Source: Vibrio astriarenae (GTDB lineage: Bacteria > Pseudomonadota > Gammaproteobacteria > Enterobacterales > Vibrionaceae). Taken from it: 64,000 nt of DNA. The translations under genes and the position numbers were made by a program. The notes under the pieces are model-generated. The model did not search any database and was not told where the DNA came from. It saw only the letters and a list, made by a program, of their open reading frames with translations. The stretch covers positions 620,001 through 684,000 of the forward strand of contig NZ_CP047476.1 in assembly GCF_010587385.1 (NCBI RefSeq), read 5' to 3'. Numbering within the stretch: position 1 is the stretch's first letter; every line of letters begins with the position of its first letter. Below are positions 8,924 through 57,284 of this stretch, piece after piece.

Positions 8924-8997
8924 TGGAGGCGCGTCCCGGAGTCGAACCGAGGTCCACGGATTTGCAATCCGCTGCATAGCCACTCTGCCAACACGCC
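8924..8997 (-). tRNA. tRNA-Cys(GCA), copy 1
   Basis: The 74-nt cloverleaf has acceptor arm GGCGTGT pairing with ACGCGCC, anticodon loop TTGCAAA (anticodon GCA), T-loop GTTCGACTC and an encoded CCA end. The discriminator base is U, as expected for cysteine. It is the last gene of a Leu-Cys-Cys unit read leftwards and is identical to the other two tRNA-Cys copies in this window. Confidence 0.97.
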
Positions 8998-9059
8998 TTT
9001 GAGTGATTAACACGAGGTTAATTATCTAATTTTTGTATTTGCTATAAAGCAAAAGAGAA

Positions 9060-9133
9060 TGGAGGCGCGTCCCGGAGTCGAACCGAGGTCCACGGATTTG
9101 CAATCCGCTGCATAGCCACTCTGCCAACACGCC
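9060..9133 (-). tRNA. tRNA-Cys(GCA), copy 2
   Basis: Identical in sequence to the copy at 8924-8997, with the same GCA anticodon and encoded CCA. It lies 62 bp upstream of copy 1 in the same unit. The spacers after the two genes are also similar, pointing to tandem duplication. Confidence 0.97.
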
Positions 9134-9166
9134 TTTGGGTGATTAACATGAGTTAATACAAGTTGA

Positions 9167-9253
9167 TGGTGCCCCGGGCCGGACTTGAACCGGCACAACG
9201 CGAACGTCGAGGGATTTTAAATCCCTTGTGTCTACCAATTCCACCACCAGGGC
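9167..9253 (-). tRNA. tRNA-Leu(TAA)
   Basis: An 87-nt class II tRNA with anticodon loop TTTAAAA (anticodon TAA), a long variable arm, and acceptor GCCCTGG pairing with CCGGGGC. The discriminator is A and CCA is encoded. It is the first gene of the Leu-Cys-Cys unit. Confidence 0.96.
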
Positions 9254-9315
9254 AACGCAATTAAGCGATGGTGACACCATCTGTTCTTTCGGCCTGTGCC
9301 GTGAGAACGAGGCGT

Positions 9316-9343
9316 ACTTTAACGGATTGAGATTTCACGTCAA
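9316..9343 (-). promoter_or_regulatory. Stable-RNA promoter of the tRNA-Leu-Cys-Cys unit
   Basis: On the minus strand, TTGACG and TAAAGT are 16 bp apart and followed by a GC-rich discriminator (ACGCCTCG). This is typical of growth-rate and stringently controlled tRNA promoters. Confidence 0.75.
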
Positions 9344-9514
9344 CAATAAATTTTAAATAAAATAATCAAACGATTAAAACCACATCAATCTGATCGCATT
9401 ACCTGCACATTGATGTTTTTTAATACTGGCTAGCACCGATTCATCGGTATGAAACTTCACTGCAATATCTATTTCATACACTGAATAAATGCCGTTTGTT
9501 CATCTATATCAGCT

Positions 9515-10303
9515 ATGAAGCCACTAAAACGATATCAATATGAGCGTTATGCTGTTCTATGCAACCTCGCCTATCCTCGCGTTTTTAAGCAAACACGTTA
9601 TGGGTTTGACCCTAATGGACAGCGGATCATAAAGAATCAGTTTGGTAAAACGATGATCCGAGTACTTTGGAGTAAAAATAGTAACGAAGTCGTTGTGGTG
9701 ATCAAAGGGTCCCACAGCGTCACAGACTGGTTGCTCAATTTCGCATTATGGACGCGCAGTTGTCAGAAGGTAGGTCTTTACTATCGAATACATGCCGGTT
9801 TTTATCATCTGTTGTTTCAAGAGAGCGCACCGACGAGAAACGAAGACAAACTGGGAGCGAGTGTCTTTGAACGACTAGAAACTTGTTTAATACCTCTTAC
9901 AGAGCAAGGTAAGCGAATTACCATCACGGGTCATTCATCTGGCGGAGCGATAGGATGTGTTTTTGCCGATTACTTTGAGCAAAAGTACCCTAAATCAATC
10001 AAGCGCATCGTTACATTTGGTCAGCCTGCTATTGGCAACTGGCAGTTTAAACGACGCTATAAGCTCGCTCATAAGACCTATCGCATTTGTTGTGACTTAG
10101 ATATCGTGACCTTTATGCCGCCTTTGCCGCTGTTGTATTGGCACAGTGGGAAAATGCTCTGGCTATACAATGGGAAAATCTACGAGAATACACCAAGTAT
10201 TATAAGGTTTGGGCGTTCAATCGTGAGCTGGGTCGTGCGACCTTTTTCCTATCACCTAATGAGCAAGTACATTCGAAACAAAGACTTTTTCGACGAAAGA
10301 TAA
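9515..10303 (+). CDS. Class 3 lipase family protein
   Basis: A 262-residue alpha/beta-hydrolase of the lipase class 3 family. The nucleophile elbow GHSSGG places Ser141 as catalytic serine; 'VTFGQPAIGN', 'CDLDIVTFMPP' and a late 'YHLMSKY' supply the family's downstream Asp and His regions. It has no signal peptide, so a cytoplasmic or membrane-associated role is more likely than secretion. The start has little ribosome-site similarity. It sits alone between two minus-strand tRNA transcription units and is transcribed opposite to them, which suggests later insertion into a tRNA region. The ester substrate is unknown. Confidence 0.85.
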   Translation: MKPLKRYQYERYAVLCNLAYPRVFKQTRYGFDPNGQRIIKNQFGKTMIRVLWSKNSNEVVVVIKGSHSVTDWLLNFALWTRSCQKVGLYYRIHAGFYHLLFQESAPTRNEDKLGASVFERLETCLIPLTEQGKRITITGHSSGGAIGCVFADYFEQKYPKSIKRIVTFGQPAIGNWQFKRRYKLAHKTYRICCDLDIVTFMPPLPLLYWHSGKMLWLYNGKIYENTPSIIRFGRSIVSWVVRPFSYHLMSKYIRNKDFFDER

Positions 10304-10307
10304 GCTT

Positions 10308-10333
10308 AAAAGAACAAAATGGAAGAAGTTCCA
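10308..10333 (-). terminator. Weak terminator after tRNA-Cys copy 3
   Basis: On the minus strand, TGGAA-CTTC-TTCCA is followed by TTTTGTTCTTTT just after the tRNA. The stem is only 5 bp, so termination may be partial. Confidence 0.45.
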
Positions 10334-10339
10334 AAAGAA

Positions 10340-10413
10340 TGGAGGCGCGTCCCGGAGTCGAACCGAGGTCCACGGATTTGCAATCCGCTGCATAGCCACT
10401 CTGCCAACACGCC
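10340..10413 (-). tRNA. tRNA-Cys(GCA), copy 3
   Basis: Sequence identical to the copies at 8924 and 9060, with encoded CCA. It lies about 1.1 kb from the other tRNA genes, across the lipase gene, and has its own promoter at 10476-10503. Confidence 0.97.
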
Positions 10414-47369: not shown

Positions 47370-48854
47370 TTAGCGCCAAACACCCCACTCTCCTGAAGTG
47401 CCTGGTTCTTCGCCTTGTGTCCACCATTGTGCTGTCCAGCTACGGCCACCATGAGTAACAACGTCTCCTTGAACATAGACAGCAGAGGCACTCCAGTCAC
47501 CTTCTGATGGCGGAGGAGTGGTATCGCCCTCACCTTCAACAACAAAGCTGTATACCGTCGTATCGCTACCTTCCGAGTTGCTCACGGTCAAACGGAATGT
47601 CAGTTCATGATCCTGTTGAGCATCAAGCTGTTCAGTATCAATAAGCAGCTCGCTGTATCGGCCGGTCGAGTACTCAACGTGCTCACCGCTTAGCTGTACC
47701 CATTCAACAGAGTCAAATTCGCCAACAGAGTTATTCGGATGAAGGACGACTAGCTCACCATTTTTAATTCTTGCTTCAACAAGATTAGCCAAGGTCATTG
47801 CCGTCACAACCGCTTCCAGATCGTTTGGTGTCTCGTCAGAAACAATCGAAAACTCACCGTAGCCCAAACCGTCTTTTGAGTTGAAGTAGTTTGAGTGCAA
47901 GGCATCTCTAAAGTACATGTAGTGATTCATTTCAGCATGCCAATCACCGACAAATACGTTTCCATCATGAAGCGCGTCATAATAGCCGTTCACCTCTGCA
48001 GCTAGGAGTCGGTCCCAATCACCTGCATTGTCTTCTGTGATCGTCACAGAGAATTCTCCATGCAGTTGTCCTTCAGCATTAAACACCTCGTACTTAACTT
48101 GGTCGCCAAGCTCAGGCGTTGTAAGTTCAACGTCCAAAGGAACAAAACGCTCACCTTTCACCAAATATGGCTCATCTGGGTCAACAGGTGGATTGCCACC
48201 ATCTCCGGTAATCACAATGTCACTACAGTTATAAAAGCCCTCTCCGACAGGATCTTCACGCTGCCAACGGGTATATAGAATGGCGTCACCTGAGCGATCA
48301 GCAGGAATCGTCATCTGCATGCGATACTTTTTCTCACCATCAACGGCAATGTCTCCGTGCTCTGAGATCAGTTCTAGGTCATCCCAGTTAAGCGGCTTGG
48401 TCACATCCACTCCCGGTTTGGTTAGGTATATCTCCCAAAACGAAGGGTTGTGAGGCGCTGTCGCTTGAAAGACATACTCAAAAGTACCTGGGGCGAGCTC
48501 TGTACGCGTCCATTGGGTGTGTTCAATATCTAAACCGCGCTTTTGATGATCGTTTGCTGCACAAAGCGTCCCATCAGGAATGTACTCTTTAACCTTATCA
48601 AAATTATTGTAGTGCGGAGCGGGGATATTGATTGCAACTTCGTTGCGCTGCACAAAAGGGTAAGCTCCCGAAATATCGTACGTTGCTTTACACGCCTCAC
48701 TCTCATGATTTCCAGACCAAAATGAGCCGTCGTTGTAACAGATACTCTGACGTGCTTCTGGGAATATCGCATAGCCGTGTGCATTAGCAGCACTCGGTGA
48801 CAGCACCCAAGCTGCGCCTATGATGATAGATAGATTGGCTTTGTTTACTTTCAT
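47370..48854 (-). CDS. AA10 lytic polysaccharide monooxygenase / chitin-binding protein
   Basis: A 494-residue secreted protein. A signal peptide of 25 residues ends 'AANA' so that the mature protein begins with His (HGYAIFPEARQ), the first ligand of the copper histidine brace. The second His is in 'TAPHNPSFWEIYL', and the axial Phe is in 'EGFYNCSDIVI'. After the AA10 domain (about 26-215) come middle beta-rich domains and a C-terminal CBM5/12 with aromatic residues ('WSASAVYVQGDVV', 'WTAQWWTQGE'). It should cut or bind crystalline chitin outside the cell. Its layout differs in detail from GbpA. The ATG at 48854 has GAGGAC upstream. Confidence 0.92.
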   Translation of the reverse strand: MKVNKANLSIIIGAAWVLSPSAANAHGYAIFPEARQSICYNDGSFWSGNHESEACKATYDISGAYPFVQRNEVAINIPAPHYNNFDKVKEYIPDGTLCAANDHQKRGLDIEHTQWTRTELAPGTFEYVFQATAPHNPSFWEIYLTKPGVDVTKPLNWDDLELISEHGDIAVDGEKKYRMQMTIPADRSGDAILYTRWQREDPVGEGFYNCSDIVITGDGGNPPVDPDEPYLVKGERFVPLDVELTTPELGDQVKYEVFNAEGQLHGEFSVTITEDNAGDWDRLLAAEVNGYYDALHDGNVFVGDWHAEMNHYMYFRDALHSNYFNSKDGLGYGEFSIVSDETPNDLEAVVTAMTLANLVEARIKNGELVVLHPNNSVGEFDSVEWVQLSGEHVEYSTGRYSELLIDTEQLDAQQDHELTFRLTVSNSEGSDTTVYSFVVEGEGDTTPPPSEGDWSASAVYVQGDVVTHGGRSWTAQWWTQGEEPGTSGEWGVWR

Positions 48855-49160
48855 TTTAATTATGTCCTCAACGTTTTGAACCTGATGATGTATCGGTCCT
48901 TTTAAAGAGAGCAAAATTAAATAATTTAACCTTATGAATTTAAAGCCCATTTAGTTGAGGTTCATTCCACAACTCACATGAATAATGTTAAATGTGCCAC
49001 AAAAGATCACTTCAACTTGTTTATTTTCAGTTACACATCCGTTGAAAGCACATCTTTAACATCGTTTGACTTTTTATTTGAATCCGCGTTTGGGACATAT
49101 ACGACGCTTAGCCTGTTCTGGTAACATGAGTATTAGTTAGACTTTGATTTGATTATAGAT

Positions 49161-50114
49161 ATGCCGAAGATAAGTAAAAATGCGGGTGAGGATCAGGCAA
49201 TACTTAATGCCAAGAAACAAGTAGCGATTCACGCTCTAAATGTAGGCATTAACGGAAAGTTGCCGACTAACTCCTATTTCAAAGAGCAACATAATATTGT
49301 TGCGGGCACGATGCAACGTGCTCTCAATCTGCTCAGTGAAAGCGATGCACTATCAACCCGCTCTAAGGGGCATCTCGGACGCATTGTTACTGACATTGAT
49401 GTCGGGTTATGTTGGAACATCGCAAAGCTAAAACCAATTCAATTATTGATGCCTAGCAGTGGTTCGATCGAAATTGACTGCCTGATCAAACACGTTACGA
49501 CTAAGCTTAGTCAACTCAATATCCCCTACTTTATCCATAATCAACCCGGTGCGTTGGAGCGTATTCGCCAAGTGGAGGCGGGTAATAGCGATATTACTCT
49601 TGTGTCAAAAGGAGCGTGTGAACACCCTACTCTGACAGCTCCCACCGGCAGCGTTAAAATCCTTGAACCGAACACTTATTATTGTTTAAAGCGCTTAGTT
49701 ATCGTCTCTAAAATCGATACTAATGCCAAAGATTGGAAAACAGTTGGCATAGACCGACAATCAACCGATCACACAGATTTCACGCTTTGTGAATTTCCTA
49801 GCGGTCATGCGCATCAGTATATTGAGACTGACTTTCGACAAGTTCCTGCTCGCGTACTTCGGGGCGAAATTGACGCTGGGATTTGGCATATTACAGGGAG
49901 TCCAGTACCGCTTTATTTCGCAGGTCTTCAAGCAACAGAAGTGACGCAAGTCACCACGCGCTCAAAACACCAAGCTATTTCAGCAGCAGCATTTATCACC
50001 AACCCCAAACGTCCTGAGCTCAGTTCTCTCCTGAACGAATTGAGAAGTGAAGAAGTCGCTCTTGCGCAAAGCCGTGCTTTTGAATCGGAAGATCCGTATA
50101 ACAAAGCGTTTTAA
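49161..50114 (+). CDS. YhfZ-family transcriptional regulator
   Basis: A 317-residue cytoplasmic regulator. The N-terminal helix-turn-helix (about 20-75; 'LPTNSYFKEQHNIVAGTMQR') is followed by a periplasmic-binding-like effector domain similar to E. coli YhfZ ('LRGEIDAGIWHITG', 'QAISAAAFIT'). It is the only regulator in the 49-57 kb cluster and is convergent with the GlpD-like gene, so it probably controls the cluster. An ATG at 49161 begins the conserved part; an in-frame start at 49149 is also possible. The effector would be expected to be a cluster metabolite. Confidence 0.75.
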   Translation: MPKISKNAGEDQAILNAKKQVAIHALNVGINGKLPTNSYFKEQHNIVAGTMQRALNLLSESDALSTRSKGHLGRIVTDIDVGLCWNIAKLKPIQLLMPSSGSIEIDCLIKHVTTKLSQLNIPYFIHNQPGALERIRQVEAGNSDITLVSKGACEHPTLTAPTGSVKILEPNTYYCLKRLVIVSKIDTNAKDWKTVGIDRQSTDHTDFTLCEFPSGHAHQYIETDFRQVPARVLRGEIDAGIWHITGSPVPLYFAGLQATEVTQVTTRSKHQAISAAAFITNPKRPELSSLLNELRSEEVALAQSRAFESEDPYNKAF

Positions 50115-50119
50115 GCAAA

Positions 50120-50147
50120 AGAAAGCCATGCACACTGCATGGCTTCT
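50120..50147. terminator. Terminator between yhfZ-like and glpD-like genes
   Basis: Perfect 10-bp arms AAGCCATGCA and TGCATGGCTT enclose CAC. The minus-strand side is T-rich (TTTCTTTTGCTT), so it suits glpD best and may work both ways. Confidence 0.82.
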
Positions 50148-50151
50148 AACG

Positions 50152-51849
50152 TTAGCACACGGGATCCATTTCTGGGCGTTCAGTCTTTGTCTTTGACTCA
50201 CGCACCATACTCGGACGGTGGGCAGTGACAAGGGCTCTATACTCTTCAATTTGCCGCGCTTTCTCTTCGTCGCTCCAGTTGAGTAGACCCTGCATCTCCG
50301 TAGCTATCGCCTCGATTTCCAGTAACCCTCCACTCTTATCCCAAAAAAACTCAGAAGTCCTTCGCACCATAAGGTCTGCCAAGCTTGCGGCCGCTTCATT
50401 ACTGATTGAATAAATCACCTCTGCGACCGTAAGACCTCGCATCGATAACCGCTTTTGGTTGCTCTGACTTTTCAGGTACTCATCAGCAACCAAGTGTGCG
50501 TTTTTGCCATACCGCGATGTCCATAGTTCTGACAGTTCTCGTGGCACACCAAGCGCATTCAATTCGGATATGATCTTGTTGGCGCAGTAGTTCTTTCCAT
50601 CCTCTAAGGTGACACCCGCTCCAGACAATATGACCTTGTCATAACGGTAGATATTGACGGATGGTGACAAATACTGACACCTATCATACTTAATGATGTA
50701 ATCCAGCATCTGCTTAGCCATTACCCTGTGGCTAGTGAGTTTTCCTCCGACTATCGAGAACAGCCCTGATTCACTGACCATAATTTGGTGTTCTCTCGGA
50801 GTCTTGCTGTTGTTCAAATCATCTTTGGGCGCGATAAGAGGCCTTAACCCCGCCCATGAGCCAATGACATGTTGCGGTCCGAGCTTAGCCTTTGGCATCA
50901 AGTGATTTGCCACGTTCAACAAGTACTGAATATCAGACTGATCGGGGCACACGTTATCAAGGTCACCTTGATAGGTTGTATCTGTCGTACCGATAAAAAC
51001 GCGATCATCTTGCATTGATGGAATTGGCCATACGACTCTTCCATCATCAGGAGAGCGAGTAAACACAGCTGAATGCAGTGGAAAGTCGCTCTTGCGAAGT
51101 ACAATATGGACGCCTTTCGTCGGTCGTAAAACCTTTGATTTGCTCCGCTCAAAACCAAGAATGTTGTCGCTCCAGGGCCCTGACGCATTGATAATGTAAT
51201 GAGCTTTAAACTGAGCCTCATGTTTCGTCAATTTGTCGATTACTTTTATACCGTCGCACTTGTTATCACTAAACGTCAGCCCTGTTACCTCACAGTGATT
51301 GATGAGCTGTGCTCCGTTTTCACAAGCGGTGCGCATGGTATCAATGGTGATTCTCGAGTCATCGGTCGATACATCATAAAACAGTGCGGCACCATTAAGG
51401 CCTTCACTTCTAAACTGGGGTTGCCGTGCTAGCACCTGAGATTTACTTAGCATCTTATGCCGACGTTTGTTCCAGTTTCCTGACACAAAGTCGTAAAACG
51501 TTAAACCCATGTTGAGAAGCCACTTTTTGTCTGGAGCATCATCGTAAAACATATACAAGAAAGGCTGTAAGCGAGTGAGGTGTGGTGCATGTCTTAGCGC
51601 CATTTCCCTTTCGCGAACCGACTCGGCAACCAAACCGAATTGATAAGTCTCCAAGTAGCGCAACCCGCCGTGAATCAATTTTGACGAACGACTCGATGTG
51701 CCCGCTGCAATATCGTTCTTTTCAACCACAAGCACTTTCATTCCGCGTAGTGATGCATCTTTGGCAATAGCGGCTCCAGTCACACCACATCCGATGACAA
51801 TAATGTCAAAGTGCTGTTTCTGTGTACTGGCTATATTCGCTCTTTTCAT
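50152..51849 (-). CDS. FAD-dependent glycerol-3-phosphate dehydrogenase (GlpD-like)
   Basis: A 565-residue flavoprotein of the GlpD family. 'IGCGVTGAAIAKDASLRG' binds FAD, 'GTSSRSSKLIHGGLRYLE' holds the substrate-binding Arg region, and 'GLRPLIAP' and 'VGGKLTSHR' supply later active-site Arg and Lys. A C-terminal DAO_C domain is present. It oxidises sn-glycerol-3-phosphate to DHAP and passes electrons to quinone at the inner membrane. It is longer than E. coli GlpD (501 residues). The ATG at 51849 overlaps the kinase stop by 3 bases (ATGA) and has GGAG upstream, so it is translationally coupled. It is the last gene of the minus-strand operon and probably an additional copy beside a standard glp locus elsewhere. 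Confidence 0.88.
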   Translation of the reverse strand: MKRANIASTQKQHFDIIVIGCGVTGAAIAKDASLRGMKVLVVEKNDIAAGTSSRSSKLIHGGLRYLETYQFGLVAESVREREMALRHAPHLTRLQPFLYMFYDDAPDKKWLLNMGLTFYDFVSGNWNKRRHKMLSKSQVLARQPQFRSEGLNGAALFYDVSTDDSRITIDTMRTACENGAQLINHCEVTGLTFSDNKCDGIKVIDKLTKHEAQFKAHYIINASGPWSDNILGFERSKSKVLRPTKGVHIVLRKSDFPLHSAVFTRSPDDGRVVWPIPSMQDDRVFIGTTDTTYQGDLDNVCPDQSDIQYLLNVANHLMPKAKLGPQHVIGSWAGLRPLIAPKDDLNNSKTPREHQIMVSESGLFSIVGGKLTSHRVMAKQMLDYIIKYDRCQYLSPSVNIYRYDKVILSGAGVTLEDGKNYCANKIISELNALGVPRELSELWTSRYGKNAHLVADEYLKSQSNQKRLSMRGLTVAEVIYSISNEAAASLADLMVRRTSEFFWDKSGGLLEIEAIATEMQGLLNWSDEEKARQIEEYRALVTAHRPSMVRESKTKTERPEMDPVC

Positions 51850-53339
51850 ACTTTGCTCCAACCGCGTGCGCGTTCAACGGCGACTTTCCACTTGCGATAA
51901 AGCTCTGTCCGTTCTTCTTCAGACATCTGGGGAGAGAAGGTCGTTTTGTTTCTATGAACCGCAAAGGCTTCGTGCTCATTTTTCCACATCGTTGAACCCA
52001 AACCCGCCATAAGTGCTGCACCAAGACTGGTGGCCTCAACGTTTCTTGGTCGAACAACCTCGACACCCAACTGATCAGCTTGAAATTGAACGAGTAGATC
52101 ATTTTGCGAAGCACCACCATCAACCGAAATGCTCTTCACATCGTATCCAGAGATGTTTTCCATCTCTTCGATAAAGTCTCTGACTGAATACACTATTCCT
52201 TCAAGAGTCGCTCTAACAACGTGGCTGCGCTTTGTCCCGGGAGTTATCCCAAGTAAAGCTCCACGAGCAAAAGAATCCCAATAAGGTGCGGAAAGCCCGG
52301 TTAAAGCAGGCACAAAATAAACATCTCCATTGTCAGGCACTTTTTGCGCAACTGACTCTGATTCTTTGGAAGAGTCGATTATTTTTAATCCGTCTCTCAA
52401 CCATTGAACCGCCGAACCTGTGCACCCTGCATAACCTTCTAACGCATAATGTGTAACGCCATCTTTTCGCCATGCTATCTGGCAACAAACACCACTCGAT
52501 GGTTCGATGATCGGTTGGTCACCAATTAACATATCAAGGAAGGTTCCAGTACCATGGGTACACTTGATCATGCCTGGCTCTGTGCAACCCTGGGCAAACA
52601 GTGCGGCATGCTGATCAGCAATAACACCGCAGATGGGGATGCTTCCTCCAATTACATTTTCATCCGTAAATGCGATGACACCCGAGTCATCACAGACTTC
52701 TGGGAAAAGTGACAGTGGCAGGTTTAGAGCACTCAACCACTCTTCATACCATTGATTATTAATAAGATCATAACTACCGGTTACGGAGGCATTAGATGCA
52801 CTGATTACATGACTAGCGCCACCTGTGAGGCGATAAATAATCCACGAGTCCACCGTACCGAACGCTAGCTTGCCTTCGTCAGCTTTCTTTCTTAGAGCTG
52901 CGCTGTCATTTAACATCCACTCTAAGCTTAAAGAAGAATAAACCGGAGCTATAGGCCAGCCAGTTCTAGAATAAACTTCATCGCCCCACACAGACGAGAG
53001 CTCTTCTGCCCTCTTTGCTGTACGCGTATCTTGCCATACGATTGCTCTGGGTGCCGCTTCCCCAGTCTCTTTGTCCCACAGAACCGTAGTCGCCCTTTGG
53101 TTGGTAATCCCGATGCATGAAATGTCATTTAACCGCAATTCAAGCGCCTTTAACGCCTGATTGACCATCTTCTTCGTCGCATCCCAAATTTCATTTGGAT
53201 CTTGTTCTACTCGGTCCGGTGAAGGAGTGTAATTTGGAAACTCAGTATATGCCTGAGATAGGATATGGCATCGGTGATTATATATGATCGCTCTAATGCC
53301 CGTCGTTCCCGCGTCAATAACTAGTATTTTCTTTTCCAT
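51846..53339 (-). CDS. GlpK-like FGGY-family kinase with altered substrate site
   Basis: A 497-residue FGGY kinase closest in pattern to glycerol kinase: 'DAGTTGIRAIIYN' (phosphate loop), 'GITNQRATTVLWDKETG', 'GTVDSWIIYRLTGG', 'GVIADQHAALFAQG' with the catalytic-base Asp242, and 'PALTGLSAPYWDSFARGA'. Compared with E. coli GlpK, the glycerol-binding Glu84 position is Ala83 (NQRATT instead of NQRETT) and the Tyr135 position is Val133, while Arg, Trp102, Asp242 and the Phe in 'GTGTF' are kept. It may therefore phosphorylate a glycerol derivative or bind glycerol weakly. The gene follows the membrane protein by 14 bp and overlaps the glpD-like gene. Confidence 0.85.
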   Translation of the reverse strand: MEKKILVIDAGTTGIRAIIYNHRCHILSQAYTEFPNYTPSPDRVEQDPNEIWDATKKMVNQALKALELRLNDISCIGITNQRATTVLWDKETGEAAPRAIVWQDTRTAKRAEELSSVWGDEVYSRTGWPIAPVYSSLSLEWMLNDSAALRKKADEGKLAFGTVDSWIIYRLTGGASHVISASNASVTGSYDLINNQWYEEWLSALNLPLSLFPEVCDDSGVIAFTDENVIGGSIPICGVIADQHAALFAQGCTEPGMIKCTHGTGTFLDMLIGDQPIIEPSSGVCCQIAWRKDGVTHYALEGYAGCTGSAVQWLRDGLKIIDSSKESESVAQKVPDNGDVYFVPALTGLSAPYWDSFARGALLGITPGTKRSHVVRATLEGIVYSVRDFIEEMENISGYDVKSISVDGGASQNDLLVQFQADQLGVEVVRPRNVEATSLGAALMAGLGSTMWKNEHEAFAVHRNKTTFSPQMSEEERTELYRKWKVAVERARGWSKV

Positions 53340-53353
53340 GATTAACTCCTTAA

Positions 53354-54298
53354 CTACTGAAGTGCAACAGAGATAACGATAAGTGCAGATGTCATTGGCC
53401 AGATAGCACTGGCTGGAGGATCGATATGAGTATCAGCACGAATTAACCAGAATCGAGCAAATAATTGCCCTAATAGCGAAGCAAGTAAACCGCATACAGC
53501 ACCAAGCGTGATCACCATAAACTGATTCTCAATAGTTCCCATGAATAGTGAGACCGCGACCGCACTCACCGCTGTGATATGGTGGGTAGCAGGCACCATC
53601 ACATTCATACCAAGAAACAGCAACGAAATGGCAGAAATGGCGAACCCAAACAGCATTACACCTTGTGCTTCTGGTTGAGGATAGAGAGTAAGTAGTTCAT
53701 AGGCTGCATAAGCAGACATAGCACCAACAAATAGACCGAGAACAGCGCTCATTGAGAAAGAGTCTTGATAGGGGAGCCAGGCATGTTCTTTACAGGGTTG
53801 GAAACGTTTCAGGCCCGTTTTTCCCTCACAGTGCTTACCAACAATTCCGCTTTTACCAAACATTAAGCGAACAACGATTGCAGAGATTACGACAGTTAAA
53901 GCGACAGAGTCTGTCTGATTCCCTAGCCCATCAACTAGCATCAATGATTGCTGAACGACAAAACCAAACAAACCGAAAGCGGCGCCAACTAAGAGCACTT
54001 GTGGTTTACCTAAACTCACCAGTGGCGTCACAATATCTCGTCCACTTTCAAGCCATCCTTTCTTGGCTGCATAAGCCGACGCTGCGACACCTGCAGCAAA
54101 CGAGATATGAGGACCAAAAAATGGGCCTAAGCCGATGAGGTTTAGGAAGGTCGGATCACCACTTCCCATCACAATGGCAATACCAACTAAAATGGCAAAG
54201 CCAGTAAACACAAATGCGACTAAAGCACCAAAAGTGGCCCCTAAAAATCCACCAGCGATGGCTCCTGCTAACTGCATTACATTGAACATGTTCTCCAT
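53354..54298 (-). CDS. Uncharacterised polytopic membrane protein, putative permease
   Basis: A 314-residue hydrophobic protein with about eight membrane helices rich in Gly and Ala. A central hydrophilic segment (about 150-175) has two Cys ('GKHCEGKTGLKRFQPCKEH'). The N-terminal 'GAIAGGFLGATFGALVAFVF' and 'FFGPHISFAAGVAASAYAA' are repeated-looking glycine-rich helices. I do not recognise the family. Its position directly before the kinase and GlpD-like genes (GAGGAC ribosome site, 14-bp gap) suggests that it imports the pathway substrate, but this is inference from context. Confidence 0.65.
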   Translation of the reverse strand: MENMFNVMQLAGAIAGGFLGATFGALVAFVFTGFAILVGIAIVMGSGDPTFLNLIGLGPFFGPHISFAAGVAASAYAAKKGWLESGRDIVTPLVSLGKPQVLLVGAAFGLFGFVVQQSLMLVDGLGNQTDSVALTVVISAIVVRLMFGKSGIVGKHCEGKTGLKRFQPCKEHAWLPYQDSFSMSAVLGLFVGAMSAYAAYELLTLYPQPEAQGVMLFGFAISAISLLFLGMNVMVPATHHITAVSAVAVSLFMGTIENQFMVITLGAVCGLLASLLGQLFARFWLIRADTHIDPPASAIWPMTSALIVISVALQ

Positions 54299-54428
54299 AT
54301 TGTTGTCCTCGTTCTGTAGGGTACTAAGTTGGGCAGCGTTTCTAATTGGTCAGCTGTCGTTATTGTTTGGCAAAAGATGCCCTCCTCTCGTTCTTATTCT
54401 TGTTCACACCACTCACCATTTTCTTAAA

Positions 54429-54452
54429 CTCTCTCGCTTCATCGCGAGAGAG
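54429..54452 (-). terminator. Hairpin between FAD-oxidase and membrane protein genes
   Basis: Perfect 9-bp arms CTCTCTCGC and GCGAGAGAG with a 6-nt loop are followed on the minus strand only by TTTAAG. It may be a partial terminator or an mRNA-stability element that sets different levels for the two parts of the operon. Confidence 0.6.
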
Positions 54453-54470
54453 TGTGTGCTTTATGAACGG

Positions 54471-55895
54471 TTACAATCCCAATTTACCTGGGTTTAATAT
54501 TCCATTCGGGTCCAGGGCCGTTTTCATCTTTTGCAAAATTAAATGCGCTTCTCCAATAGAGCGTCGACTGTATGGGGAGCGCGCTAAACCACCACCATGG
54601 TGATGAGAAAGCTCCGCCCCATATTCAATACAGACTTCCATCGTGGTCTTCCAAATTTCTCTAAGGCGTTCTACTGCTACCTCATCATTTTCAGTTTGAG
54701 AGAGCAGTATCATGTACATGGATGTACCTTGGTCGTAGATGTGTGAAAAGTGCGATAAAACCTCATCAGATAGCGGCCCTAATGCCTGTTTAAGAGCTCC
54801 CCATAATTCATGTATGGTGTCCCAGTTGTGGGCTATCTCTATCGTTTCGCCAAACCCACCTTTGGTGGCTAACAAGTTCTCAACGGTTGAGAAGTCGTAA
54901 CGTCGCCCCATCCAGCCTTGCACGCCTTCAGGGCCAAGTGCTTCTGCGCCAAACCGAGTAGCAATACTGTTGAGTGCTCCTTGCTCTGCATCCACCATTT
55001 CAGGTAGACCTCTACTGCCTAAGAACAGCACCGGTGTTGAAAAAGATGTGTCCCCCATTGCATGTTTCGCTTCTTCTGTATCATAGAAACGAACCAGAAA
55101 CGGCTTAATATTGGATGCAGAGATCTCTCTCATTAGATCTAAACCGGCTTTGACTGTTGGTACTGAATAGGTCATGAGCGCTTCAGCTGGGGGCAATCGG
55201 AATATTTTCAGCGTAACAGAGGTAATCACTCCCAAAGTTCCCTCTGAGCCCAAAAAGACCTGTCTAAGATCTGGGCCCATTGCAGCGCGAGGATTAGCCT
55301 TAAGAGACATCTTCTCACCAGTGGCTAGTATCACGTCATAACCCACAACTAAGTCTTCGATTCCGCCATACAAAGAAGAAAACTGACCCGTTGCTAGTGT
55401 CGCTAACCATCCTCCTACAGTAGAGCGATAAAGTGACTGCGGCGAATGGCCAAGTGTCCAGCCTTGCTCGACAAGCAAATCTTCAAGGTCTCCCCCATTG
55501 AAACTACTCGTTGCCGTCACCGTCATATTGGACTCATTGACAGAATAGGAAGCCGGTAGCTCAGACACATCCAGAACGATTCCACCCTTGGTTGGCAGGG
55601 GTTGACCAGTCACCGAGGAAGCTAAAGCTCGAACAGTGACCGGCACTTTATGCTCATTCGCTATAGCAAGGACACTCGTTATGTCGCTCTCCTCTATCGC
55701 CGTGATATAGACATCTCCTTTGTTTGGGTGTTGATCAAGCAAGTTAAGCTTTGTCATCAAAGGCCAGGTGTCATGGCTACTTGCTTCAAGATCATTTAGT
55801 CGAGTAGATACTTTTTCCTCACCGAGTGTATTTCGAAGCTCTTCTATCGCGTTTTGATAATTCAACATAGCGCTATTATCCTCTTGTCTAAACAT
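54471..55895 (-). CDS. FAD-binding oxidase, alkyl-DHAP synthase/GlcD-like
   Basis: A 474-residue FAD-linked (PCMH-fold) oxidase. The FAD site is 'TVRALASSVTGQPLP', followed by 'GHSPQSLYRSTVGGWLATLA' and 'GGIEDLVVGYDVILATG', which closely follow alkyldihydroxyacetonephosphate synthase (AGPS). Near the C-terminus 'LSHHHGGG' (431-433) is the AGPS His triad, and 'DPNGILNPGK' is the common end of this superfamily. It may act with the divergent GlcF-like Fe-S protein as a membrane dehydrogenase. The ATG has GGAG 6 nt upstream. AGPS itself makes ether lipids in eukaryotes; many bacterial relatives are hydroxyacid dehydrogenases, so the reaction is open. Confidence 0.85.
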   Translation of the reverse strand: MFRQEDNSAMLNYQNAIEELRNTLGEEKVSTRLNDLEASSHDTWPLMTKLNLLDQHPNKGDVYITAIEESDITSVLAIANEHKVPVTVRALASSVTGQPLPTKGGIVLDVSELPASYSVNESNMTVTATSSFNGGDLEDLLVEQGWTLGHSPQSLYRSTVGGWLATLATGQFSSLYGGIEDLVVGYDVILATGEKMSLKANPRAAMGPDLRQVFLGSEGTLGVITSVTLKIFRLPPAEALMTYSVPTVKAGLDLMREISASNIKPFLVRFYDTEEAKHAMGDTSFSTPVLFLGSRGLPEMVDAEQGALNSIATRFGAEALGPEGVQGWMGRRYDFSTVENLLATKGGFGETIEIAHNWDTIHELWGALKQALGPLSDEVLSHFSHIYDQGTSMYMILLSQTENDEVAVERLREIWKTTMEVCIEYGAELSHHHGGGLARSPYSRRSIGEAHLILQKMKTALDPNGILNPGKLGL

Positions 55896-56030
55896 TCAAT
55901 ACTCCAAATAAGGAGAACTCAATATATTGACTATTGATCGTTAAATAGCTAATGTCAATGTGAATTGTTCAAAAATAGAGCTGGATCAAGAGTGATCATT
56001 AGTGCCTAAAGCCATCATTGAGGAGAACGG
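55896..56030. promoter_or_regulatory. Divergent promoter region with inverted repeats
   Basis: Between the divergent FAD-oxidase and Fe-S genes lie a GATCA-AGAG-TGATC repeat (55984-55997) and an imperfect repeat with TTGAC/GTCAA ends (55927-55958). A TTGACA at 55953-55958 (minus) could be a -35 box, but the -10 box is poor. These are candidate sites for the YhfZ-like regulator. Confidence 0.4.
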
Positions 56031-57284
56031 ATGCTAATCAAAGTGTCACCACAATTTGCCGATACCCAACTCGGGAGCCAGGGTGCTAAAATCATAAAGA
56101 AGTGTGTTCATCGTGGCTTTTGCAATGCCCACTGCCCTACATTCCTAGCAACGGGTGACACGAATATGAGCCCTCGTGGCCGCATTTATTTGATTAAAGA
56201 ATACTTACAGGGAAAATCTCTGACACAGGTCGAGATGGCGAGCATCAAAACTTGCGTGGGTTGTCGTTCTTGTGAAACAGATTGCCCTGGCGGGGTAAAA
56301 GTCGCGAGACTGATTGAACTTGCTAAAGTCACAATTGAACACGAGTATCCGCAAAGCTCGACTTTAAAACAGCGTCTGATGAAAACTTTGTGTAAGGTGC
56401 TCCCTTCACCGCAAACACCTCTTTTAATGATGAGCTCGATAGCAAGGGACGGTTTAAATTCAAAAGGGTCACTGTATGTCGCGAAAAATCAGGTTAAAGC
56501 AAGGATTAGCAGACACAATCCAGTCTCTCCTAATCGCACCCTTGCACTAGTAACAGAGTGTACAAAAGCAGGTTTGGCACGGAATGCTCACCACTCAGCT
56601 CAGTATATTCTTGAGAATATGGGTTACCGTGTTATCGAGTTGCCAAAGACCCATTGCTGTGGCGCATTCAAAGCGAGCATCGGTGAGTCATCCAAGGCGA
56701 GGCAACAAGCAAGAGAGAACATTGATGCTTGGTGGGGTCTACTATCAGAGGAAAGCCTAGAAATAGTGACCATTTCTTCTAGTTGCGAAGCGCAGCTCAA
56801 GCAATATGGCAATATGTTACGTTGTGACAAAAGGTATGCCGACAAAGCTAATTATATTGCTCGCAAGACAATTAATATTGCGGAGTTAATCAATAAAGAC
56901 AGATTAAACATTGTGCACAACTCACGAGCTCAATATCGTGTTGCGATGCACATACCCTGCTCACTTCGCCATCGCAGTGATAAACACCGCGAGCTAATAC
57001 AACTTGTTAGCAGACTTCCGGTTATTATCGACGATACAGAAAGAGAACGCGTCTGCTGTGGCTCGGGAGGGACTTACTCACTGTTTTATCCTGAACTTGC
57101 CAGCCGTATAGGCAAAACAAAGATCTCAGATCTCACTTTAGGCAAACCAGACTACATCGTTACCGCAAATACCGGGTGCCAGTATCACATGGGTAAACAC
57201 ACAAACATTCCCGTGATCCACTGGCTTGAGCTAGTTTTTATCCTAATGCAGTCAGACAAAGGTATAAAAAAAGCCGCAGGCTAG
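56031..57284 (+). CDS. GlcF-like iron-sulfur oxidoreductase subunit with one missing Cys
   Basis: A 417-residue protein of the GlcF family (glycolate oxidase iron-sulfur subunit, about 407 residues). Two ferredoxin motifs lie near the N-terminus and two CCG domains follow ('CCGAF', 'CCGSGG', 'GCQYH'). The second motif C75-C78-C81-C85 ('CVGCRSCETDCP') is complete. In the first, 'CVHRGFCNAHCP' has Arg28 instead of the usual Cys (codon CGT instead of TGT), leaving C25, C31 and C35. Cluster 1 may be a [3Fe-4S] type or be lost. The gene is divergent from the FAD oxidase, its likely partner; no GlcE homologue is present. A terminator overlaps the stop codon. Confidence 0.85.
   Translation: MLIKVSPQFADTQLGSQGAKIIKKCVHRGFCNAHCPTFLATGDTNMSPRGRIYLIKEYLQGKSLTQVEMASIKTCVGCRSCETDCPGGVKVARLIELAKVTIEHEYPQSSTLKQRLMKTLCKVLPSPQTPLLMMSSIARDGLNSKGSLYVAKNQVKARISRHNPVSPNRTLALVTECTKAGLARNAHHSAQYILENMGYRVIELPKTHCCGAFKASIGESSKARQQARENIDAWWGLLSEESLEIVTISSSCEAQLKQYGNMLRCDKRYADKANYIARKTINIAELINKDRLNIVHNSRAQYRVAMHIPCSLRHRSDKHRELIQLVSRLPVIIDDTERERVCCGSGGTYSLFYPELASRIGKTKISDLTLGKPDYIVTANTGCQYHMGKHTNIPVIHWLELVFILMQSDKGIKKAAG

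What the first reader, a model, noticed from the sequence alone, without database searches (positions are those of the whole stretch)
49149..57284. Accessory glycerol-type catabolic cluster with an AGPS-like oxidase, GlcF-like Fe-S protein and unknown permease
Six genes lie together: a YhfZ-like regulator, a GlpD-like dehydrogenase, a GlpK-like kinase, a polytopic membrane protein, an AGPS/GlcD-like FAD oxidase and a divergent GlcF-like protein. Kinase plus GlpD would give DHAP from glycerol. The FAD and Fe-S pair would add a second oxidation that the classical glp pathway lacks. I infer a system for a glycerol derivative (for example an alkylglycerol, glycerol-1-phosphate or glycerate-like compound), not housekeeping glycerol use. 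The combination is not one I know as a described pathway.
Basis: partly seen in the sequence, partly recalled or inferred. Interest (0 to 1): 0.75.

Follow-up and report, generated by a model that had tools for sequence, protein, structure and literature searches.

The report
Pathway for a modified glycerol
A set of six neighbouring genes in a marine bacterium looks like a pathway for eating not glycerol itself but a chemically modified glycerol, using a relative of the enzyme that builds ether lipids in animals, probably run in the breaking-down direction.

Summary
The six genes are real and lie at the given coordinates. The set recurs in Vibrio, Aliagarivorans and Photobacterium, and without GlcF in Thioclava and on a Microbacterium plasmid. 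The genome keeps a separate glpK-glpD locus. The wider core is kinase + GlpD-like + AGPS-like flavoprotein, found in scattered lineages (Cupriavidus, Burkholderia, Novosphingobium, an uncultured Firmicutes bin); regulators and transporters vary. New finding: in all 18 distinct loci examined where a GlpK-like kinase sits near an AGPS-like gene, positions Glu85 and Tyr136 (E. coli GlpK), which bind glycerol's hydroxyls, hold neither Glu nor an aromatic residue; of 23 unlinked GlpK-like kinases, 21 keep Glu85 and all keep Tyr or Phe at 136. The flavoprotein keeps AGPS active-site residues (two of three named, plus HHH) and lacks GlcD-type motifs. The unknown permease is DUF7973; its neighbours (63 of 80 loci: FGGY kinase or diol-microcompartment-type genes) and model suggest a small-polyol channel. 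Best reading: a C1-substituted glycerol is phosphorylated, oxidised to a C1-substituted DHAP, and cleaved by the AGPS-like enzyme to DHAP. Substituent, reaction direction and GlcF's role are inferred, not shown.

The parts
49149..50114 (+). YhfZ-like transcriptional regulator, 321 aa from the TTG; a later ATG start is possible
   Evidence: PF14503 118.9 bits (cut-off 35), NF041241 119.3 bits (cut-off 260, not reached); homologue near the AGPS-like gene also in L095, L112, L113, L114
50122..50146 (.). terminator-like stem between the convergent GlpD-like and YhfZ-like genes
   Evidence: consensus scan only
50152..51861 (-). GlpD-like FAD dehydrogenase, 569 aa; predicted to oxidise C2 of the phosphorylated substrate
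   Evidence: DAO + DAO_C; positions 54, 55, 233, 270, 317, 332, 354 of E. coli GlpD unchanged in the 11 cluster copies where they are covered (L022 is truncated at 54 and 55)
51846..53339 (-). GlpK-like FGGY kinase, 497 aa, with altered glycerol pocket (E85A, Y136V)
   Evidence: TIGR01311 550.4 bits against cut-off 590.35; pocket residues
53354..54298 (-). DUF7973 membrane protein, 314 aa, candidate small-polyol channel
54428..54453 (.). perfect 10-bp inverted repeat in the gap between the flavoprotein and permease genes; possible attenuator or processing site
   Evidence: consensus scan only
54471..55895 (-). AGPS-like FAD protein, 474 aa; predicted to cleave the C1 substituent from C1-substituted DHAP
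   Evidence: best solved relatives are ADPS/AGPS (4.8e-47 and 9.7e-39) ahead of 1.9e-22 for the next; SHHHG and HFSHIYDQGTSMY motifs
55896..56030 (.). 135-bp divergent region between the flavoprotein and GlcF genes
   Evidence: coordinates; a sigma-70-like match at 55958-55930 on - is within chance expectation (13 found, 14.1 expected)
56031..57284 (+). GlcF-like Fe-S protein, 417 aa, lineage-specific accessory; first 4Fe-4S motif has Arg in place of one Cys
   Evidence: PRK11274 323 bits against cut-off 333; CxHRGFC in all six cluster copies aligned, CVHCGFC in E. coli GlcF

Best explanation
The cluster is a catabolic module for a glycerol whose C1 hydroxyl is substituted (an ether or similar small C1-X derivative). 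DUF7973 lets the compound in. The GlpK-like kinase, whose pocket no longer recognises the free C1 hydroxyl, phosphorylates the far hydroxyl. The GlpD-like enzyme oxidises C2, giving a C1-substituted dihydroxyacetone phosphate. The AGPS-like flavoenzyme then breaks the C1-X bond through a covalent N5-flavin adduct, the AGPS half-reaction run backwards with water as acceptor, and releases DHAP to central metabolism and X to the medium or elsewhere. YhfZ is the likely regulator. GlcF is an accessory of the Vibrio-type version, perhaps an electron acceptor for GlpD. Shown by computation: gene content, conservation, altered kinase pocket, AGPS-type active site. Inferred: substrate, direction of the flavoenzyme reaction, channel function, regulator role, GlcF role.
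For: Kinase: E85A/Y136V in the window and six orthologues and in the 120 best hits, the window's own included (Ala at 85 in 120; Val in 118 and Ile in 2 at 136). Other linked kinases have different replacements: L115 Thr/Ala; Cupriavidus-type L123, L131, L148, L149 Ser, Ala, Ala, Cys at 85 with Arg at 136; Novosphingobium-type L125 and L150 Ala or Thr with Ser or Gln. In all 18 distinct linked loci examined there is neither Glu at 85 nor an aromatic residue at 136; of 23 unlinked GlpK-like kinases 21 keep Glu85 (two have Gln or Gly) and 23 keep Tyr (15) or Phe (8) at 136. One genome (G534) carries two linked altered kinases (L113, L115) and one unlinked unaltered kinase (L079). Glu84 and Tyr135 hydrogen-bond glycerol hydroxyls (PMC3245297, PMC2680290, passages), and the GlpK signature is called extremely well conserved. 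Flavoprotein: AGPS is the best solved relative and Tyr578, Arg419 and HHH are kept. GlpD-like keeps its G3P-site residues. Kinase + GlpD + AGPS-like trios in several phyla. G3P-responsive antiterminator genes near AGPS-like genes in Cupriavidus, E. coli, S. clavuligerus and E. gilvus. DUF7973 context: 45 of 80 loci near an FGGY kinase, 18 near microcompartment, PduO or glycyl-radical genes.
Confidence: 0.48

Rival explanations
1. The AGPS-like flavoprotein is a real dehydrogenase or oxidative cleavage enzyme acting on the keto-phosphate from GlpD (or on a C1-extended or C1-deoxy polyol such as a tetritol or 1,2-propanediol), passing electrons to GlcF or other carriers.
For: Electron carriers recur: GlcF, a weakly Fe-S-subunit-like protein in L024, ygcN/O/Q/R in E. 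coli. DUF7973 is shared with 1,2-propanediol-type microcompartment loci and with loci holding RpiB-, Fe-ADH- and epimerase-like genes. Loss of Glu85 and Tyr136 would also suit a C1-methyl or C1-extended substrate.
Against: The GlcF query found no match in L095, L123, L131 or L125; other carriers were not searched there systematically. The window-type GlcF has lost a cluster cysteine in all six copies and evolves fast; the L024 protein lacks most cluster cysteines in the alignment. AGPS-type residues are kept.
Confidence: 0.27
2. FAD protein + GlcF form a D-2-hydroxyacid (glycolate, glycerate or lactate) dehydrogenase that adds a second oxidation to ordinary glycerol use.
For: GlcF is the nearest named family of the Fe-S protein (323 of 333 bits) and GlcD the best NCBIfam hit of the FAD protein (134.6 of 567.9 bits); the AF2 model matches D-lactate dehydrogenase as well as AGPS.
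Against: The DGNxH and EHGIG motifs seen in E. coli GlcD are replaced by AGPS-type HFSHxYxQGxSxY and SHHHG in at least 97% of 120 sequences (invariant in the 49). No GlcE is in the cluster. GlcF is missing from the other versions tested.
Confidence: 0.12
3. A redundant, horizontally acquired glycerol operon that uses plain glycerol.
For: The kinase reaches the PRK00047 GlpK subfamily cut-off (547 against 498) and the GlpD-like enzyme keeps its G3P-site residues.
Against: Both pocket positions are altered in the 120 best hits while the genome's other GlpK keeps them; the AGPS-like gene would have no role.
Confidence: 0.06
4. Ether-lipid biosynthesis: kinase and GlpD supply DHAP and the AGPS-like enzyme makes alkyl-DHAP.
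For: AGPS-like residues; one source names relatives alkyldihydroxyacetonephosphate synthase.
Against: No acyltransferase or fatty-alcohol gene among the six; a permease and G3P-type regulation suggest catabolism; the kinase no longer looks like a glycerol kinase; the gene is rare and accessory (3 of 247 family genomes).
Confidence: 0.05

Closest known systems
glpFKD glycerol catabolism (E. coli GlpF, GlpK, GlpD)
   Same: Kinase then FAD-linked 3-phosphate dehydrogenase giving a DHAP-type ketone
   Different: Kinase has lost two glycerol-contact residues; DUF7973 in place of GlpF; an AGPS-like third enzyme is linked
AGPS/ADPS, alkyl-DHAP synthase of eukaryotes
   Same: Best solved relative; catalytic Tyr, Arg419 and the HHH motif kept
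   Different: Bacterial, 474 aa, no lipid-synthesis partners, Arg515 replaced by Glu, an unaligned gap of 12 residues where Dictyostelium ADPS has 37; proposed to run in the cleaving direction
E. coli ygcU-ygcW-ygcE-ygcP cluster (uncharacterised)
   Same: AGPS-like flavoprotein beside an FGGY kinase, a dehydrogenase and a G3P-type antiterminator
   Different: SDR in place of GlpD, YgcE-type kinase, MFS transporters, ETF-like carriers
Glycolate oxidase GlcDEF
   Same: GlcF homologue and the FAD-oxidase fold
   Different: No GlcE; flavoprotein lacks GlcD motifs
Alkylglycerol monooxygenase (AGMO)
   Same: Would also break 1-O-alkyl glycerol ethers; called the only known enzyme to do so (PMC7911779 abstract)
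   Different: AGMO uses tetrahydrobiopterin (PMC9192799 abstract) and oxygen (recalled); the route proposed here would need neither

Membership tests
[quoted passage not shown]
Glycerol kinase GlpK | TIGR01311 equivalog cut-off 590.35 | tested here: not met
   550.4 bits; the broader PRK00047 subfamily cut-off (498) is met with 547
Glycerol kinase GlpK | Signature residues Arg83, Glu84, Tyr135, Asp245, Phe270 (PMC3245297) | tested here: not met
   Glu84 is Ala and Tyr135 is Val; the other three kept
Aerobic G3P dehydrogenase GlpD/GlpO | Equivalog cut-offs | tested here: not met
   355.5 of 840, 302.7 of 360, 273 of 352
Aerobic G3P dehydrogenase GlpD/GlpO | G3P-site residues R54, Y55, H233, T270, R317, R332, K354 (recalled list) | tested here: met
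   L022 is truncated and has no residues at 54 and 55
AGPS/ADPS | Closest solved relative by sequence | tested here: met
   2UUU 4.8e-47, 4BBY 9.7e-39, next non-AGPS 1.9e-22
AGPS/ADPS | Catalytic Tyr508/Tyr578 and Arg352/Arg419 | tested here: met
   alignments, placed by the Tyr578Phe (4bca) and Arg419His (4bc7) mutant chains named; PMC3509576 names R352, Y508, R447
AGPS/ADPS | Arg447/Arg515 | tested here: not met
   Glu in the window and nearly all close relatives
AGPS/ADPS | AGPS rather than lactate-dehydrogenase fold | tested here: inconclusive
AGPS/ADPS | Acyl/alkyl exchange activity with oxidised FAD | not testable with these tools
   needs an enzyme assay
GlcD-type D-2-hydroxyacid dehydrogenase | DGNxH and EHGIG motifs of E. 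coli GlcD | tested here: not met
GlcF | PRK11274 cut-off 333 | tested here: not met
   323 bits
GlcF | Four-cysteine first 4Fe-4S motif | tested here: not met
   Arg in place of one Cys in all six cluster copies
YhfZ | YhfZ_C domain and full-length equivalog | tested here: inconclusive
   PF14503 met; NF041241 119.3 of 260 not met
Urea transporter (UT) fold | Structural match over most of the chain | tested here: inconclusive

The most novel reading that the evidence does not exclude
An undescribed bacterial route, scattered over several phyla, breaks glycerol ethers, or other C1-substituted glycerols, without oxygen: kinase, GlpD-like oxidation, then AGPS chemistry run in reverse through a flavin N5 adduct. 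It pairs with an unrecognised small-polyol channel family (DUF7973), and related modules include the uncharacterised E. coli K-12 ygcU-ygcE cluster.
Probability: 0.33. Interest if true: 0.85.

Novelty: new variant of a known kind. Interest (0 to 1): 0.66.

Why it matters
If right, it gives a function to a large group of bacterial AGPS-like flavoproteins now annotated mostly as FAD-binding oxidoreductases, with E. coli YgcU as a relative, and to a kinase group now often named glycerol kinase by annotation pipelines. Alkylglycerol breakdown is credited to one enzyme only, AGMO (PMC7911779 abstract). It also proposes a substrate class for DUF7973, which stands near FGGY kinases and diol-type microcompartments. 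The two-residue kinase marker offers a simple way to tell such clusters from true glycerol operons.

Tried and rejected

Rows dropped or outside the counts: L022 (altered kinase, 3.9-kb contig ends before an AGPS gene could be seen) is in neither count. The 23 unlinked kinases are those scoring over 150 bits to the window's in the fetched stretches; more divergent FGGY kinases were not counted, and 'unlinked' means no AGPS-like ORF in the fetched stretch (5.7-21 kb), since some of these genomes hold an AGPS-like gene elsewhere. L160 repeats L010, L118 and L119 repeat L009 and L008 (contig lengths), and L132 repeats L007 (coordinates); none was counted again. AGPS-like loci without a GlpK-like kinase, outside the 18: L112 (another FGGY kinase and PfkB), L114, L163, L164 (GlpD-like, no GlpK match), L124 (DUF1537 kinase), L126-L130 (other FGGY kinases), L151, L152, L161, L165, L166, L167 and E. 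coli (YgcE-type kinase with YgcW-like SDR), L168 (SDR only), L169 (nothing), and L162, whose YgcE-like kinase reads Asp at 85 and Leu at 136 in an uncertain alignment. Among 14 short AGPS-like loci (L096, L097, L099-L108, L110, L111) 7 showed a GlpK- or GlpD-like match at 1e-8; two of these kinases (L106, L111) proved YgcE-like when extended. FAD genes with the EHG-type motif (L146, L154, L157, L159) and four where my motif pattern found nothing (L153, L155, L156, L158) are in no trio. Contig-length overlap of the flavoprotein and kinase hit lists was 32 of 88 flavoprotein contigs of 5 kb or more, a rough lower bound from lists capped at 120.
Full report
Observation. YhfZ-like (+) converges on GlpD-like, GlpK-like, membrane protein and AGPS-like flavoprotein (all -, in transcription order flavoprotein, membrane protein, kinase, dehydrogenase), and GlcF-like (+) diverges from the flavoprotein over 135 bp. 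Kinase and dehydrogenase genes overlap by 16 bp. The window lies on the second contig of a two-contig 4.8-Mb genome. The same genome has another glpK-glpD pair on contig 1 (kinase 42% identical to the window's) and a further GlpD-like gene on contig 2. For the AGPS-like and GlcF-like proteins the only other matches are weak pieces of a long ORF near C2:1411 kb.

Conservation. A scan of genome contigs with a DUF7973 alignment found 479 relatives and kept the best 80. The six-gene arrangement is in L007 (Vibrio), L008 and L009 (Aliagarivorans; YhfZ split over two ORFs in L008), L010 (Photobacterium rosenbergii) and L012 (Vibrio hannami), and the set without GlcF in L011 (Thioclava indica). Identities to the window are flavoprotein 74-79%, permease 60-86%, kinase 70-76%, dehydrogenase 64-66%, YhfZ 54-64%, GlcF 33-38%. 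A Microbacterium plasmid carries YhfZ, a HAD phosphatase, flavoprotein, DUF7973, kinase and dehydrogenase. An uncultured Firmicutes bin (L024) has flavoprotein, a protein weakly like Fe-S subunits, dehydrogenase, kinase, DUF7973 and HAD. Within the window's own family the cluster is rare: permease in 2 of 121 genomes, flavoprotein in 3 of 247, each count including the window's genome.

The core. Going out from the flavoprotein instead of the permease shows that the stable core is kinase + GlpD-like + AGPS-like. It recurs with other transporters and regulators: Cupriavidus metallidurans (MFS, kinase, dehydrogenase, flavoprotein, then a G3P-responsive antiterminator, PF04309 9e-49), Burkholderia arboris, two more genomes with Cupriavidus-type copies (L148, L149), Novosphingobium (L125), and L150 with a Novosphingobium-type kinase. 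More distant AGPS-like genes sit with other kinases: a DUF1537 kinase plus PdxA in Methylobacterium nodulans; FGGY kinases in Roseibium, Paracoccus, Streptomyces clavuligerus and Enterococcus gilvus; E. coli K-12 ygcE with the SDR gene ygcW, an arrangement of YgcU-, YgcE- and YgcW-like genes also seen in L151, L152, L161, L165, L166 and L167; and an FGGY plus PfkB kinase in the genome of L043, Budvicia diplopodorum. Some AGPS-like genes have only a GlpD-like neighbour (L114, L163, L164) or none that I recognised (L168 has only an SDR, L169 nothing). Antiterminators of the G3P-responsive family (PF04309) occur in the Cupriavidus, E. coli, S. clavuligerus and E. gilvus clusters. GlcF and the HAD phosphatase look like lineage-specific additions.

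The kinase pocket. In E. coli GlpK Arg83, Glu84, Tyr135 and Asp245 hydrogen-bond the glycerol hydroxyls and Phe270 packs on its carbons (PMC3245297, passage; similar for Plasmodium GK, PMC2680290, passages; in Chaetomium GK the listed polar contacts do not include the Tyr, PMC7765489, passages). With Met counted these are positions 84, 85, 136, 246 and 271. The FGGY study calls the GlpK signature extremely well conserved across its clusters. The window kinase reads R-A-W-V-D-Q-F at 84, 85, 104, 136, 246, 247, 271 where E. coli GlpK and the genome's other GlpK read R-E-W-Y-D-Q-F. The 120 best hits (the window's own among them) all have Ala at 85 and Val (118) or Ile (2) at 136; linkage was not checked for them. 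In 18 of 18 distinct loci examined with a GlpK-like kinase near an AGPS-like gene there is neither Glu at 85 nor an aromatic residue at 136: window and L007-L012, L024, L095, L098, L113 and L115, L123, L125, L131, L148, L149, L150. The replacements differ by lineage: Ala/Val; Thr/Ala in L115; Ser, Ala, Ala or Cys with Arg in the Cupriavidus-type; Ala or Thr with Ser or Gln in L125 and L150, where the alignment at 136 is ambiguous but not Tyr. Of 23 unlinked GlpK-like kinases in DUF7973 loci, 21 keep Glu85 (L026 has Gln, L045 Gly) and all keep Tyr (15) or Phe (8) at 136. Several of these are as divergent from E. coli GlpK as the linked ones and still keep Glu85. L022, with the altered pair on a 3.9-kb contig, is in neither group. 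Genome G534 has two linked, altered kinases and one unlinked, unaltered one. The window-type kinases form one clade (41 of 41 sampled, support 0.964); between the four linked lineages identity is 31-41%, so about four lineages carry the signal and the direction of change was not rooted.

The dehydrogenase keeps seven residues of the E. coli G3P site (list recalled), so it should still bind a glycerol-3-phosphate moiety.

The Fe-S protein. All six cluster GlcFs aligned have Arg in place of one cysteine of the first 4Fe-4S motif. The GlcF query found nothing in the Thioclava, Microbacterium, Cupriavidus, Burkholderia or Novosphingobium loci. Electron carriers are nonetheless recurrent near AGPS-like genes, which keeps the oxidative rival alive.

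Mechanism. A kinase that has lost recognition of the C1 hydroxyl, a G3P-type dehydrogenase and a flavoenzyme of the family whose known product is 1-O-alkyl-DHAP fit together as: C1-substituted glycerol, its 3-phosphate, C1-substituted DHAP, DHAP plus leaving group. The M. nodulans arrangement fits the same logic, since a DUF1537 kinase plus PdxA can also give a DHAP-type ketone (recalled from acid-sugar pathways). Which glycerol hydroxyl Glu84 and Tyr135 hold is taken as C1 from recall, not from a call. The leaving group is unknown.

Novelty. The parts are known families; the combination was not found described in the searches made (listings only except the passages cited). I rate it a new variant of a known kind: a glycerol-type kinase-dehydrogenase pathway with a changed substrate and an added AGPS-like step.

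Noticed in passing
window 8924-10413 (-): Three tRNA-Cys genes and one tRNA-Leu close together; the repeated tRNA-Cys caught the eye.
   Followed up: no
window 47370-48950 (-): LPMO_10 protein with GbpA_2 and CBM5/12 domains, well below the GbpA equivalog cut-off (86.6 of 481).
   Followed up: no
window 54428-54453: Perfect 10-bp inverted repeat in the 172-bp gap between the flavoprotein and DUF7973 genes.
   Followed up: no
L112 7372-16459: Budvicia-type locus: YhfZ, DhnA-type aldolase, AGPS-like flavoprotein 59%, FGGY and PfkB kinases, RbsD-like protein and MFS transporters; suggests a sugar-level version of the module.
   Followed up: partly
L129 8480-8944: A broken DUF7973 gene directly after the AGPS-like gene on an Enterococcus gilvus plasmid.
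   Followed up: partly
L120 2658-13375: E. coli K-12 ygc cluster: AGPS-like YgcU with HHHG motif, FGGY kinase YgcE, G3P-type antiterminator YgcP, SDR YgcW, electron carriers; function unknown. YgcU-YgcE-YgcW-like sets recur in L151, L152, L161, L165, L166, L167.
   Followed up: partly
proteins P0146, P0156, P0160: Cof-type HAD phosphatase fused to the AGPS-like flavoprotein; role unexplained.
   Followed up: no
for example L014, L016, L031, L043, L056, L065, L069, L070, L072-L076, L078, L081, L082: DUF7973 inside or beside diol-type microcompartment or glycyl-radical loci, a candidate non-MIP counterpart of PduF.
   Followed up: partly
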